Virus record (IMG/VR): IMGVR_UViG_3300025949_000069
Span: 1 to 30,890 of that record
Reading direction: 5' to 3' (one strand)
Source: a virus
Length of the DNA stretch: 30,890 nucleotides
Shown: piece after piece, positions 5,417 to 17,740 of the stretch
Layout of the letters: each line of letters begins with the position of its first letter
How positions within the stretch are numbered: position 1 is the stretch's first letter
The notes under the pieces: model-generated
What the model was told of the DNA's origin: nothing
What the model saw: the letters and a program-made list of their open reading frames with translations, nothing else
The model's database searches: none
Made by a program: the position numbers and the translations under genes

Positions 5417-6147
5417 GCAAGCCCACGCCGGAGCGAGAGAAGGAGATACGCGAGCGACATGCCGAGGCGCCGTCCGTCGACGACTGCGACGCATGCGCTC
5501 TGCTCGCCCTCCTCGACGACGCCCGCACCGCCCTCACCACCGCCACCCAACGAGCAGAGGCCGCAGAGGCGGCGTTGCGGACGGCGCGCGTGGATGCGCT
5601 GAGGGAGGCGGCGGCGTCTTGGCGCGCGCAGCACGGGGCGGGCCTGTTGCCAGAGTGGCTCGACGCACTCGCAGAAGCGGTGCATGACTGGCGCGCGTGG
5701 GGCGAGCGCTGCGCGCAGATGGGCGCGGCACGCGTAGAGGACGAGCGGCGACTAGACGCGACAGAGCTTGCACAGGCGATGGAGTCGGCCGGCCCGCCTC
5801 CATGGTCTGTCGGCGAGATGCGCGAATGGGTCCGCGACGTGGTGAACGCCGCGCGGTTCCGCACGCAGAGCCCGCTCGTGCAGGTTCCTGGCGGGATGTC
5901 GGAGACGGACCTCGACGCCGTTCTCGCGCGCGTCGGCCCTCCACCCGCACCCGTGCAGGAGGCGACGGTGGGGGCGAGCCCGGACCCGAGTCTCGACCCG
6001 GCCAACGCTCGCGAGTTCGCGCTGGAGGTCGCCGCACGCGCCGTACTCCGCAACATTCCGCGACCCGAGGCGTTCCCTGGCGCGAAGGAGCTGCGCGCGG
6101 CGATCGAGATGCCCGACCCGTTCGAGCGAAAGCCGGTGCGGTCGTGA
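5413..6147 (+). CDS. Hypothetical coiled-coil protein
   Basis: The 244-residue product opens with KPTPEREKEIRERHAEAPSV and a CDAC pair; a long Ala/Arg-rich heptad stretch follows (residues about 32-62, DDARTALTTATQRAEAAEAA). Phage proteins that start with a 'reIreRh....DC.ACaLLa.lDdar' segment and a coiled coil are common but uncharacterised. The rest is helical with two Pro-rich linkers. The gene is rich in GCG and CGC, unlike the genes before it, and has a single CTAG. Function unknown. Confidence 0.7.
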   Translation: MSKPTPEREKEIRERHAEAPSVDDCDACALLALLDDARTALTTATQRAEAAEAALRTARVDALREAAASWRAQHGAGLLPEWLDALAEAVHDWRAWGERCAQMGAARVEDERRLDATELAQAMESAGPPPWSVGEMREWVRDVVNAARFRTQSPLVQVPGGMSETDLDAVLARVGPPPAPVQEATVGASPDPSLDPANAREFALEVAARAVLRNIPRPEAFPGAKELRAAIEMPDPFERKPVRS

Positions 6148-6185
6148 GCGCGGGGCTGCCGGTGATCCAGGAAGGTCGATCGTGA
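6144..6185 (+). CDS. 13-codon bridging mini-ORF
   Basis: A GTG overlaps the preceding stop (GTGA) and opens a 13-codon frame, MSAGLPVIQEGRS, whose TGA overlaps the GTG of the next gene (GTGA at 6182). It therefore fills the 34-base gap between two genes exactly. It also contains the AGGAAGG ribosome-binding site of the next gene. It is probably a translational relay, or a remnant, rather than a functional protein. Confidence 0.3.
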   Translation: MSAGLPVIQEGRS

Positions 6186-14786: not shown

Positions 14787-15209
14787 ATGCCCGTTAGCTA
14801 CAAGCCACACCGCGACCTGATCCTGTGCCAGCTCATCCAGCGGAAGAAGATCGGGGCCATCGACCTCCCCGACGACTATCAGGAGAGCAACCCGCGGGCG
14901 AAGGTGATCGACGTGGGGCCTGGCCGCATCGTCCAACTAGGCGGTGAAATGGTCCGGGAGCCCATGCCAGTGGTCCCCGGTGACATCATCATGATCGACG
15001 CATCGCAGGGCTGGCACGTCCATACGGACGCCTCGGGGGCCTATGCGCTGCTACCGTCGAGCGCCATCCTTGCCACCATCGAGGGCGACGAGGAGCACGA
15101 GGCAGCGCTACCGCCCAAGCCGGCCGAGACGGGCCTGATCGACACGGAGACTAAGCTCGACGTGAAGACGCAGCTACGCAAGCTCAAGGCAGCGGGCCGG
15201 AGACACTGA
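14787..15209 (+). CDS. GroES-like co-chaperonin
   Basis: The 140-residue protein fits the GroES fold: PHRDLILCQLIQRKKIGAID (a first strand and the mobile-loop region at about 18-28), LPDD, then AKVIDVGPGR (the Val-Gly-Pro-Gly turn), and VVPGDIIMID (the VxxGDxV strand). A further domain (residues 72-140) is longer than in bacterial GroES, with a conserved-looking SSAILATIEG. Phage GroES homologues replace the host cofactor so that GroEL folds the capsid protein. AAAGGGAGAG precedes the ATG. It may help fold the phage capsid protein, by inference. Confidence 0.75.
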   Translation: MPVSYKPHRDLILCQLIQRKKIGAIDLPDDYQESNPRAKVIDVGPGRIVQLGGEMVREPMPVVPGDIIMIDASQGWHVHTDASGAYALLPSSAILATIEGDEEHEAALPPKPAETGLIDTETKLDVKTQLRKLKAAGRRH

Positions 15210-15373
15210 TGCGGGCCTGGATTGCCGACCTCATCGAACGCGCTCCAGCCGCTGACCCTCAAGCGGCGCTGGATGCGGTGGCCACGCTGGAGGCCGCGGA
15301 GAAGGCGGAGCCAGGGTCAGCAGAGCGGCTGGAGCGCGCGAGGCGGAAGCGAGAGCGCAAGGCCAAGCGGTGA
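15209..15373 (+). CDS. 54-residue hypothetical protein
   Basis: The ATG at 15209 overlaps the stop of the GroES-like gene by one base (TGATG), and the TGA overlaps a GTG of the next gene (GTGA at 15370). The product opens MRAWIADLIERAPAADPQAA and ends in a strongly basic helix (ERARRKRERKAKR). Function unknown. Confidence 0.55.
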   Translation: MRAWIADLIERAPAADPQAALDAVATLEAAEKAEPGSAERLERARRKRERKAKR

Positions 15374-15801
15374 CCATCCCGTTCCCCTGCCTCCTACGTC
15401 CAGCAGAGGACCGTGACACGGCCTTCGTCATCGGCTCATGGCTGGAGAGCTACAAGAATGCAGCTCCCAAGGGCACGTGGCGTCATCAGCTCCCATGGCC
15501 ACGCTACCGCCGACAGCAGACGGCGGTCATCAAGCACGCGATGGAGCACGGCTCGACGGTCGTAGCCTGCGTTCCTGATGACACCGACCACCTGCTCGGG
15601 TTCGCATGCGGCCGTGGCTCCGTAGTCCACTACGTGCACGTCAGACCCGAGAGGCGTAGGCTAGGGCTCGCTACGATGCTCGTGCAGACGCTCTCGCTCG
15701 GTGGTGGGACATGCGAGGCGTCCCACATGACGCCTGCCGGGGAGCACCTGGGCCGCAAGTTCTCGCTAACGTACAACCCTCTGTCTGCGATGGTGGAGTG
15801 A
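15370..15801 (+). CDS. GNAT-family acetyltransferase-like protein
   Basis: The start is GTG at 15370, overlapping the previous stop (GTGA). The 143-residue protein opens LLRPAEDRDTAFVIGSWLES, has a strand segment VVACVPDDTDHLLGFACGRG, and then VVHYVHVRPERRRLGLATML (residues 85-104), which matches the acetyl-CoA motif of GNAT enzymes (V-R-x-x-x-R-R-x-G-x-A). The end is less conserved. Phages carry similar proteins next to packaging genes; the substrate is unknown. It would transfer an acetyl group to a protein or small molecule. Confidence 0.7.
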   Translation: MTIPFPCLLRPAEDRDTAFVIGSWLESYKNAAPKGTWRHQLPWPRYRRQQTAVIKHAMEHGSTVVACVPDDTDHLLGFACGRGSVVHYVHVRPERRRLGLATMLVQTLSLGGGTCEASHMTPAGEHLGRKFSLTYNPLSAMVE

Positions 15802-16115
15802 TGATCCTGCGGCTCCTCCACAGCATCCGCGTCCGCCGGCCTGGCAGCGCCGCATACGACGAGCTGGTGAGCATCTCAGACGCTCAGGCCACCATCGTGG
15901 AAGGGCCGCACGGTGTCATCGTGACGGCTGTGGAGGAGTCGACCTTCGTGCCCTGGGCTCAGGTCCGCAGCATCGAGTGGCCTACCAGTTCCCGCAGTGC
16001 CCCGGGTGACACGGCAAGCTCAGAGGGCAATCCGACGCTTGCTGACACTCGTACCAGCAGCCCCACGCCCGGCAAGAAGCGTGGTCCCCGCAATCAGAGT
16101 CCGCCGAACAGTTGA
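15801..16115 (+). CDS. Small hypothetical protein with low-complexity C-terminal tail
   Basis: The ATG at 15801 overlaps the previous stop (TGATG). The first 60 residues form a probable beta domain (LRLLHSIRVRRPGSAAYDEL, then ATIVEGPHGVIVTAVEESTF and VPWAQVRSIEW). Residues 61-104 are Ser/Thr/Pro/Gly-rich and look disordered; this part lies antisense to the start of the lipoprotein gene. The tail may have been created when that gene was inserted. Confidence 0.6.
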   Translation: MILRLLHSIRVRRPGSAAYDELVSISDAQATIVEGPHGVIVTAVEESTFVPWAQVRSIEWPTSSRSAPGDTASSEGNPTLADTRTSSPTPGKKRGPRNQSPPNS

Positions 16116-16281
16116 CTGTGCACCACGAGCCGCCCGCGGTCACTCTGCATGTGAGCCCCGGCGAGCACGTAGAGACGCCGTCGTCAGGACCAGCAGCATC
16201 CCCAGCGCATGGAGCGAGGTAGTCAGGATGGACCGAGGCGGGCGAGCAACCGACGAGCAGAGCGAGCATCAGGTAGCGCAT
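15982..16281 (-). CDS. Cysteine-rich phage-encoded lipoprotein, the only reverse-strand gene
   Basis: Translated from the complementary strand, the 99-residue protein begins MRYLMLALLVGC, a short export signal with lipobox LVGC ending at Cys12. After it come twelve cysteines (25, 39, 45, 54, 58, 64, 70, 75, 79, 85, 91, 96) in a disulfide-rich pattern: CSPGLTC, SWC, CSADSDCGDHASC, GCWYECQQASDC and CHPGHC. Such 'C.aDsDC....C' repeats are typical of secreted and lipoproteins of myxobacteria and relatives. Ser follows the lipidated Cys, so outer-membrane sorting would be expected in a Gram-negative host. Encoded against all other genes, it looks like a moron; superinfection exclusion is a natural guess but unproven. 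An upstream in-frame extension to 16482 runs antisense over TerL and is rejected. Confidence 0.75.
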   Translation of the reverse strand: MRYLMLALLVGCSPASVHPDYLAPCAGDAAGPDDGVSTCSPGLTCRVTAGGSWCTVNCSADSDCGDHASCRAWGCWYECQQASDCPLSLPCHPGHCGNW

Positions 16282-16287
16282 GCTTCT

Positions 16288-16315
16288 GGTGTAGCGACGG
16301 TCGAGCCTGACGCAA
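16288..16315 (-). promoter_or_regulatory. Weak promoter candidate for the reverse lipoprotein gene
   Basis: On the minus strand, TTGCGT (16310-16315) is followed after 16 bases by TACACC (16288-16293), which is six bases before the lipoprotein ATG (16279-16281). The geometry, TTGCG, 16 bases, -10, six bases, ATG, repeats that at 8895, and there is again no ribosome-binding site. The -10 is poor and the resemblance could be chance. The gap 16116-16333 is otherwise occupied by the lipoprotein gene and a short leader for TerL. Confidence 0.3.
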
Positions 16316-16333
16316 CGACTGGACACCGGTTCA

Positions 16334-17740
16334 GTGGACGTTGAAGCCGACCTAGAGCGCCTACGGGCTGACCTGTTGGTCTCCATCCCGTTCTGTCCCC
16401 ACGAGCCCACGAGGCGCCAGAGGGCGTTCCTAGCCCTCCAAGAGCGGGAGGCTCTGTACGGCGGTGCGGCTGGCGGCGGCAAGTCTGACGCGCTCCTAAT
16501 GGCGGCGTTGCAGTACGTGGACCGGCCGGACTACTCCGCGATGCTGATGCGTCGGACGTTCGCCGACCTAAGCCTTGACGGCTCGATCATGTTCCGCGCG
16601 CACCAGTGGCTGGACGAAGTGCCAGGCATCCACTGGAACGGGTCGGACCATCGCTTCACCTTCCCCAGCGGCGCCAGACTCACCTTCGGGTACTGCGACC
16701 ACGAGGACGACCGGCTCCGCTACAAGTCCGCCGAGTTCCAGTTCATCGGCATCGACGAGGTAACGACCTTCACCGAGAGTATGTACACCTACATGTTTTC
16801 GCGTCTGCGCCGTCGGTCTGGCTCGGACGTGCCTATCCGGATGCGGGCGGCTACCAACCCGGGCGACATCGGGCATGCTTGGGTCAAGGCCAGGTTCATA
16901 GAGCCGCGGAACCGCGAGCGGCCCTTCGTCCAGGCGTTCGGCAAGGACAACCCCTACAACGACATGGAGGATTACCTCAAGTCGCTTGCCCAGCTCGATC
17001 AGACGACGAGAGACCAACTCGAACACGGCCTGTGGATCTTGGACGATGGCCAACGAGTCTACCGCCACGACGCCAAGCACGACGTGGAGGCTCTGCCCAC
17101 CCACGACCCCAACGGTCGGCCACTGAGCCCACAGGGCTGGCACCGGGCGTTCATCGCCGACCTTGGAGCCTCCGAGGTCAAGCCCACCACCGGCTTCGCC
17201 CAGCTCGCATGGCACGAGAACCACCCGCACACGTTCGTGGAGGAGGCGACCAAGGAGGCGGGCATCATCCCGGCGACGCTGGCCGAGCGGTTCCAAGCTG
17301 AGATCGCCGAGCATGGCCCGGAACTGGTGTGCATTATCGACGAGGGCGCCCTAGGTCACGCCTATGGCAACGAGCTGCGCGTCCGGTATGGCCTGCCCAT
17401 CATCGCAGCCGAGAAGAGCGAGAAGCGGGCTAACCGACGCCTACTCAACGGTGCCTTGGAGCGAGGGGAGTGCCGGCTCATCAAGGGCATGTGCGATGCG
17501 GTGGCTACCGAGTGGGCGTCACTGGTCTACGACAAGTCGGGGCTAGACGAGGCCAAAGGCCTTGCGAACCACTGCGCTGATGCGGTACTGTACGGCTGGC
17601 GTCACTCGCAGGCGCACAGATCCGAACGCGTGGCTGTAGAGCCGGAGTATCAATCGCCAGACTGGTGGGCGCAACGTGCGGCAGAGGCTGAGGCAGCCGA
17701 TCGCCGTGTCGAGGATGTCCCCGGCTATGAGCGATGGTAG
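16334..17740 (+). CDS. terL: Terminase large subunit
   Basis: TerL is the packaging motor and nuclease. The 468-residue product starts at GTG (16334). Motor domain: Walker A GGAAGGGKS (43-51, Lys50), Walker B FIGIDE (137-142), and the coupling motif ATNPG (173-177). Nuclease domain with RNase H-like fold: Asp276 in ADLG, Asp336 in IIDEG and Asp416 in CADAVLYGWR. The N-terminus has a Q-motif-like HEPTRRQRAFLAL. The end is acidic and Trp-rich. Nothing is missing relative to the family. No good ribosome-binding site precedes the GTG. It overlaps the next gene by 14 bases. Confidence 0.95.
   Translation: MDVEADLERLRADLLVSIPFCPHEPTRRQRAFLALQEREALYGGAAGGGKSDALLMAALQYVDRPDYSAMLMRRTFADLSLDGSIMFRAHQWLDEVPGIHWNGSDHRFTFPSGARLTFGYCDHEDDRLRYKSAEFQFIGIDEVTTFTESMYTYMFSRLRRRSGSDVPIRMRAATNPGDIGHAWVKARFIEPRNRERPFVQAFGKDNPYNDMEDYLKSLAQLDQTTRDQLEHGLWILDDGQRVYRHDAKHDVEALPTHDPNGRPLSPQGWHRAFIADLGASEVKPTTGFAQLAWHENHPHTFVEEATKEAGIIPATLAERFQAEIAEHGPELVCIIDEGALGHAYGNELRVRYGLPIIAAEKSEKRANRRLLNGALERGECRLIKGMCDAVATEWASLVYDKSGLDEAKGLANHCADAVLYGWRHSQAHRSERVAVEPEYQSPDWWAQRAAEAEAADRRVEDVPGYERW

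What the first reader, a model, noticed from the sequence alone, without database searches (positions are those of the whole stretch)
15982..16281. Reverse-strand Cys-rich lipoprotein inserted between packaging genes
It is the only minus-strand gene in the window and lies just before TerL. It has a clean lipobox and twelve further cysteines in a myxobacterial-like disulfide pattern, quite unlike any phage structural protein. The orientation and position are typical of a moron expressed independently of lytic genes, for example to alter the host surface or exclude other phages.
Basis: partly seen in the sequence, partly recalled or inferred. Interest (0 to 1): 0.7.

Follow-up and report, generated by a model that had tools for sequence, protein, structure and literature searches.

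The report
Phage-borne myxobacterial cysteine-rich lipoprotein
A small phage, probably of myxobacteria, carries a backward-facing gene for a lipid-anchored, cysteine-rich protein resembling ones its presumed hosts make, and a related phage keeps the same gene in the same place, so it is a real gene that may block rival phages or change the host surface.

Summary
Window 15982-16281 (-) encodes 99 aa with a lipobox (LVGC) and 12 further Cys. The strongest evidence is a sister phage (contigs L229 and L262) with an orthologue in the same slot and orientation: 45 of 97 aligned residues identical, 13 of 13 Cys kept, frame open. 0 of 5000 simulations of unconstrained drift match that. Weaker relatives of its modules are Cys-rich, often lipobox-bearing proteins of Myxococcota: 19 of 377 genomes, none with stops in the match, against 2 of 373 and 2 of 369 in two control phyla, all four broken by stops. 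The closest TerL found in cellular genomes is in a Polyangiaceae MAG, so the host is probably a myxobacterium. Some relatives score with the TraA-type repeat TIGR04201 or with DUF7107; the window protein reaches neither cutoff. The moron reading is partly supported: the gene is optional in the wider family, but no integrase, promoter or terminator was found. Best guess: an outer-membrane lipoprotein made in the infected cell that blocks a receptor, as T5 Llp does. Function is inferred, not shown.

The parts
15982..16281 (-). Cys-rich lipoprotein gene, 99 aa; lipobox LVGC with Cys12 as presumed lipidation site; 12 further Cys in about three chained modules (residues 25-58, 58-79, 79-96; my division)
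   Evidence: orthologue in L229 and L262; purifying-selection tests; Myxococcota relatives
16246..16281 (-). short presumed type II signal peptide MRYLMLALLVG-C; +2 Ser and +7 His fit the outer membrane by the M. xanthus sorting signals (PMC3222651)
   Evidence: sequence; sister MRIAILALILAG-C; sorting passages; no signal-peptide program was available
15801..16115 (+). Small convergent gene (104 aa, weak bPH_6 below cutoff), overlapping the lipoprotein 3' end by 134 nt; same arrangement in the sister phage (128 nt)
16334..17740 (+). TerL; starts 52 nt from the divergent lipoprotein ATG (53 nt in the sister phage)
15370..15801 (+). GNAT acetyltransferase; an equivalent ORF lies between TerS and TerL in L229 and L262 (aligned) and, by eye, in L111 and L012
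14274..14786 (+). TerS
14787..15209 (+). GroES-like co-chaperonin

Best explanation
Shown: a real, conserved phage gene, opposite to the late genes, encoding a small protein with a lipobox and 12 conserved extra cysteines, of the module type found in Myxococcota Cys-rich proteins. Inferred: the phage infects a myxobacterium; the protein is exported, disulfide-bonded and lipid-anchored in the host outer membrane during infection; there it binds and masks or jams a surface component that its own kind uses for adsorption, so that the infected cell and later its debris do not capture further phages ('lytic conversion', as with T5 Llp). The phage seems to have taken a host-type Cys-rich scaffold for this.
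For: Orthologue in the same slot and orientation in the sister phage, 13 of 13 Cys kept, dN 0.59 and dS 1.38. Profile matches in 19 of 377 Myxococcota genomes against 2 of 373 and 2 of 369 controls, whose matches are broken by stops. Near full-length relative L220 with the same module order. Closest TerL in a cellular genome from a Polyangiaceae MAG (Myxococcota). Sorting residues fit the outer membrane. No PF00589 or PF00239 match, so a role during lytic infection fits. Small lipoproteins are exclusion factors in lytic phages: T5 Llp on FhuA, Rtp45 on LptD (passages of PMC9586334 and PMC12685063). The Polyangiaceae relative carries a different lipoprotein-like ORF upstream of its putative TerS (L111:297-701).
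Against: No functional or expression data. No match to any PHROG at E 0.05 or better. It is not next to a receptor-binding gene, as llp is. No promoter, terminator or Shine-Dalgarno found. Codon statistics weak. The signal peptide is very short (Cys at position 12) with one R. The structure model has low confidence (mean pLDDT 60). TerS is as divergent as this protein (43% identity), so fast evolution is no special sign of an arms race. The host is inferred, and the orthologue is known from one sister species only.
Confidence: 0.42

Rival explanations
1. Host-surface or social-behaviour modifier: the lipoprotein mimics host Cys-rich adhesin modules (TraA-type stalk repeats) and changes cell-cell contact or is passed to kin cells by outer membrane exchange.
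For: TIGR04201, the repeat first described in TraA, scores below its cutoff of 25 bits in 2 of 5 host-type relatives scanned, L220 (19.4) and L203 (13.3); TraA and repeat passages; lipoprotein toxins SitA on the Mx-alpha prophage-like element travel by outer membrane exchange; sorting residues fit the outer membrane.
Against: The window protein has no NCBIfam match at E<=10; the sister scores 7.7 of 25 bits. 3 of 5 host-type relatives do not score with TIGR04201 either. No PA14 or toxin domain found. Whether this host performs outer membrane exchange is unknown.
Confidence: 0.17
2. Passenger cargo captured from the host with no phage function.
For: Absent from 5 of 5 more distant relatives inspected; relatives are host Cys-rich proteins.
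Against: Kept in two phage lineages at 46% identity with all Cys and frame intact; dN/dS about 0.43.
Confidence: 0.15
3. Lysis (outer spanin) or virion protein.
For: A small outer-membrane lipoprotein is formally what an o-spanin is (recalled); the gene lies in the packaging block.
Against: Not near the putative lysis genes (L109:10148-10606 with a hydrophobic start and coiled-coil-like sequence by eye; L109:10603-11121, PHROG hit tail lysozyme; 2 of 2 without a Pfam match). Opposite strand to the late genes; Cys-rich modules are not a spanin feature (recalled).
Confidence: 0.08
4. Spurious antisense ORF.
For: Codon score no better than antisense blocks; no expression signals.
Against: 0 of 5000 drift simulations match the observed identity or Cys retention in the sister phage; same slot, strand and 52/53-nt spacing.
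Confidence: 0.02

Closest known systems
Myxococcota Cys-rich repeat proteins and TraA-type repeats (TIGR04201; Pfam DUF7107)
   Same: C-x2-D-x-D-C type modules chained through Cys, often an N-terminal lipobox, Myxococcota distribution; near full-length relative L220
   Different: Phage-encoded, about three modules in 99 aa; scores below both family cutoffs
T5 Llp, Cor and Rtp45 superinfection-exclusion lipoproteins
   Same: Small phage lipoprotein predicted for the outer membrane; Rtp45 has a Cys30-Cys38 disulfide
   Different: No similarity found (no PHROG match), 12 extra Cys, not beside a receptor-binding gene; exclusion untested
Ltp (S. thermophilus phage TP-J34) exclusion lipoprotein
   Same: Cell-surface lipoprotein coded by a phage (abstract start in listing)
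   Different: Temperate phage of a Gram-positive host; no sequence link shown
SitA lipoproteins on Mx-alpha
   Same: Lipoproteins on a phage-like element of myxobacteria
   Different: SitA has a C-terminal toxin domain and an immunity partner; none seen here

Membership tests
TIGR04201 Myxo_Cys_RPT | HMM score at or above 25 bits | tested here: not met
   Window protein no match at E<=10; sister 7.7 bits
TIGR04201 Myxo_Cys_RPT | Relatives confined to Myxococcota | tested here: inconclusive
   19 of 377 Myxococcota genomes against 2 of 373 and 2 of 369 in two other phyla, the four control matches broken by stops; only three phyla searched
Pfam DUF7107 (PF23416) | Gathering score 24.6 bits | tested here: not met
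   Window protein 12.2 bits, E 0.25; sister no match at E<=1; of 4 host-type relatives scanned 1 (L308, 36.1 bits) passes
Bacterial lipoprotein (signal peptidase II) | Lipobox [LVI][ASTVI][GAS]C after a hydrophobic stretch | tested here: met
   LVGC; sister LAGC; motif recalled
Bacterial lipoprotein (signal peptidase II) | PROSITE position rule (Cys at 15-35, six preceding residues free of D/E/R/K; recalled) | tested here: not met
   Cys at 12 with R2 inside the stretch; host-type relatives L212 and L219 also have Cys at 12-13 with the start codons I assigned
Bacterial lipoprotein (signal peptidase II) | Actual lipidation | not testable with these tools
   Needs palmitate labelling or globomycin
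Llp/Cor-type superinfection-exclusion lipoprotein | Homology to known exclusion lipoproteins | tested here: not met
   No PHROG family at E<=0.05; no solved-structure match better than E 0.078
Llp/Cor-type superinfection-exclusion lipoprotein | Gene adjacent to receptor-binding gene | tested here: not met
   Neighbours are the PH-like gene and TerL
Llp/Cor-type superinfection-exclusion lipoprotein | Blocks adsorption or injection | not testable with these tools
   -
Moron | Optional gene absent from relatives | tested here: met
   0 of 5 distant relatives inspected have it; present in the sister species; profile scan of 189 viral and phage loci finds it only in loci of these two phages
Moron | Own promoter and terminator | tested here: inconclusive
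   0 consensus promoters, 0 terminators; the scan covers sigma-70-type sites only
Moron | Expression from a prophage | tested here: inconclusive
   No PF00589 or PF00239 match in the 41.6-kb record; other routes to lysogeny not excluded

The most novel reading that the evidence does not exclude
A phage has taken the Cys-rich module that myxobacteria use in surface recognition proteins (the TraA-type stalk repeat) and made a minimal lipid-anchored form of it, which engages the host's contact or recognition system, either blocking a Cys-rich receptor by mimicry or spreading to kin cells by outer membrane exchange, so that phage exclusion or a surface change acts beyond the infected cell.
Probability: 0.08. 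Interest if true: 0.85.

Novelty: new variant of a known kind. Interest (0 to 1): 0.5.

Why it matters
Two searches of the held library for phage lipoproteins of Myxococcota or myxobacteria gave 0 papers each, and in the main text of the M. xanthus phage review the words 'receptor' and 'lipoprotein' do not occur. A conserved phage lipoprotein built from host-type Cys-rich modules gives a specific, testable handle on what such phages do at the myxobacterial surface, and links phage lipoproteins to the module family used in TraA.

Tried and rejected
Homology of the single protein: phages and plasmids by tblastn up to E 10 (one record each, E 0.5 and 9), viral contigs (only the identical record), genome contigs (90 pattern matches, none confirmed), Pfam, PHROGs and NCBIfam and solved structures (best E 0.078 to Beta-toxin Cn5, taken as Cys-spacing noise). 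GNAT and GroES scans gave no further phage lineage. A cysteine and lipobox scan of the first 106 loci found this gene only in four copies of the same phage; other Cys-bearing ORFs it listed I judged unrelated (next best tblastn E 0.012). The major-head-protein relatives were examined only by these scans. The 95% relative (L003, same contig as L091 and L228) starts inside TerL and does not reach the slot. A later profile scan of 189 viral and phage loci found the gene in 12 loci, all of the window phage or its sister (next E 0.23); in 80 genome TerL loci the best match was E 0.0035, a 47-residue frame without Met start that I take as antisense noise.

The single-sequence Myxococcota search is weak evidence by itself: 42 of 377 genomes at E<=0.01, with the reversed protein giving 19 of 377, and several of the 42 are noise by eye (for example L199, L209, L211, L216, L225). 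The profile search is the better test. In the rows shown its control genomes tend to be smaller, and only the top 13 candidates per genome were scored.

I first thought the 44-residue tail of the convergent + gene was an artefact of an insertion (codon score -0.33 against 0.37 for its first 60 codons). The sister has a similar tail and overlap, so I dropped that. Structure: mean pLDDT 60, pTM 0.42, too low for a fold search, which I did not run. A tblastx of the phage against the Polyangiaceae contig gave scattered short matches and was not used.

Full report
OBSERVATION. The minus-strand ORF at 15982-16281 starts with ATG, is 99 aa long and has 13 Cys, one of them in the lipobox LVGC at residues 9-12. 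The window is a 30,890-base virus record. A second record, IMGVR_UViG_3300005563_000016 (41,597 bases), is 100% identical in all stretches compared, which together cover the window, and is a circular permutation: both its ends carry window 6103-6172, so it closes as a circle, and the window lacks about 10.6 kb of it. The genes that I annotated by family are all on the + strand: Rad52, HNH, RuvC, DNA methyltransferase, TerS, GroES-like, GNAT, TerL, portal or adaptor, major head protein and a weak internal virion protein match. I did not run a full gene call.

IS THE GENE REAL? Within one sequence the case is weak. The codon score of the ORF is no better than that of antisense blocks (synonymous score 0.039; 88 blocks with median -0.048 and maximum 0.213). 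No sigma-70-type promoter or terminator lies within 15300-16900, and there is no Shine-Dalgarno match, although only 11 of 28 + gene starts tested have a match of 4 nt or more. The decisive evidence came from a portal scan, which found two contigs of a sister phage, L229 and L262 (70-78% DNA identity to the window in the aligned pieces; 99.98% identical to each other over 4513 bases). Both carry TerS, GroES-like, GNAT and PH-like genes, then a minus-strand lipoprotein, then TerL. The two minus-strand proteins share 45 of 97 aligned residues, all 13 Cys, the lipobox and an opening MR, with gaps of one or two residues. With the same substitutions placed at random, 0 of 5000 runs reached the observed 45 identities (mean 24.6) or 13 Cys (mean 2.8). 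In the 55 codons outside the overlapping + gene, 0 of 5000 reached the observed 26 identities. The protein alignment was optimised before this test, which favours identity a little. dN is 0.59 and dS 1.38; dS is near saturation. The comparison is of two lineages only: a profile scan of 189 viral and phage loci found no third, nor did a viral-contig scan with the pair.

SURROUNDINGS. The gene starts 52 nt from TerL, divergently (53 nt in the sister), and its 3' end overlaps the end of a convergent + gene by 134 nt (128 nt in the sister). In five more distant relatives that I inspected by ORF list (TerL about 40-45% identical), the slot before TerL holds a + strand ORF in four (L111, L012, L011, L010) and nothing in one (L013); none of the five has this lipoprotein. 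So the gene is optional in the wider family and kept in this subgroup.

HOST AND RELATIVES. In the genome collection the best TerL match is in a Polyangiaceae MAG (L111, 45% over residues 19-455, E 1e-103; phylum Myxococcota), with, by eye, a GNAT and a small gene upstream of TerL as in the window. A profile of the two phage lipoproteins matches 19 of 377 Myxococcota genomes at E<=0.001, none with stops in the match. In two control phyla, those of a Solirubrobacterales MAG (Actinomycetota) and of Planctomycetes bacterium Pan216, it matches 2 of 373 and 2 of 369 genomes, and all four matches contain stops. Many of the matched proteins that I read have a lipobox and chained C-x2-D-x-D-C-type modules. 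L220 aligns over nearly the whole length (34% identity). L219, L203 and L207 are small stand-alone proteins of this type. Of the four host-type proteins scanned with Pfam, L308 passes DUF7107 (36.1 bits) and the other three stay below. Of the five scanned with NCBIfam, L220 and L203 score 19.4 and 13.3 bits with TIGR04201, cutoff 25, and the other three do not match it. TIGR04201 was built from the Cys-rich repeats of TraA, the outer-membrane-exchange receptor (passages of PMC3325183). The window protein passes neither model. I therefore call it a divergent relative of the Myxococcota Cys-rich modules, not a member of either family.

HOW IT MAY WORK. In M. xanthus, inner-membrane lipoproteins tend to have Lys at +2 and matrix lipoproteins Ala at +7 (passages of PMC3222651). 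The window protein has Ser and His there, the sister Gln and Thr, which fits the outer membrane. No tyrosine integrase (PF00589) or serine recombinase (PF00239) was found in the 41.6-kb record, and none of the 30 ORFs scanned (a subset of the genome) matches an integrase or repressor family, so there is no sign of lysogeny by integration. A role during lytic infection is then the simplest reading. The best precedents are T5 Llp, which binds FhuA and stops further adsorption, and Rtp45, which acts on LptD and has a disulfide (passages of PMC9586334 and PMC12685063). Everything from export onward is inference. The main rival is a change in cell contact or social behaviour, suggested by the kinship to TraA-type repeats and by SitA lipoprotein toxins on the prophage-like Mx-alpha element (passages of PMC5562445).

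NOVELTY. Two searches of the held library for phage lipoproteins of Myxococcota or myxobacteria gave 0 papers. Of 50,697 phage records, which include Mx8, only one gives even a weak tblastn match to the window protein (E 0.5); the collection may leave out records very near the window. Phage outer-membrane lipoproteins that exclude other phages are a known kind; a version built from Myxococcota Cys-rich modules appears to be a new variant of it.

Noticed in passing
L331/L332 (Polyangiaceae MAG contig WQYX01000039.1, 36,725 bases): Relative of the window phage with a 51-base direct repeat at its two ends that reads like the 3' half of a tRNA-Phe gene (by eye; ARAGORN found no tRNA), and a tyrosine integrase (PF00589, E 2e-11) near one end: it looks like a temperate phage using a tRNA attachment site, unlike the window phage.
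   Followed up: partly
L111:297-701 (+): Another lipoprotein-like ORF (MKTSLMLAVLFVSLVSC...) just upstream of the putative TerS in that phage, not similar to the window protein.
   Followed up: partly
window 15982-16115: Convergent antisense overlap of 134 nt between the lipoprotein and the end of a + gene, kept in the sister phage (128 nt); both frames may be used.
   Followed up: partly
window 14787-15209 (+): GroES-like co-chaperonin between TerS and TerL, 84% identical in the sister phage and the most conserved of the six proteins compared.
   Followed up: no
L109:9168-9238 (-): tRNA-Met (CAT) gene in the part of the phage genome missing from the window.
   Followed up: no
L109:9506-9988 (-): 160-aa protein with two hydrophobic stretches and an internal lipobox-like LQGC (by eye) near putative lysis genes; possible outer spanin or holin. 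No Pfam or PHROG match.
   Followed up: no
window 1-30890: The window is an incomplete piece of a phage genome of about 41.5 kb that another record holds in circular permutation.
   Followed up: yes
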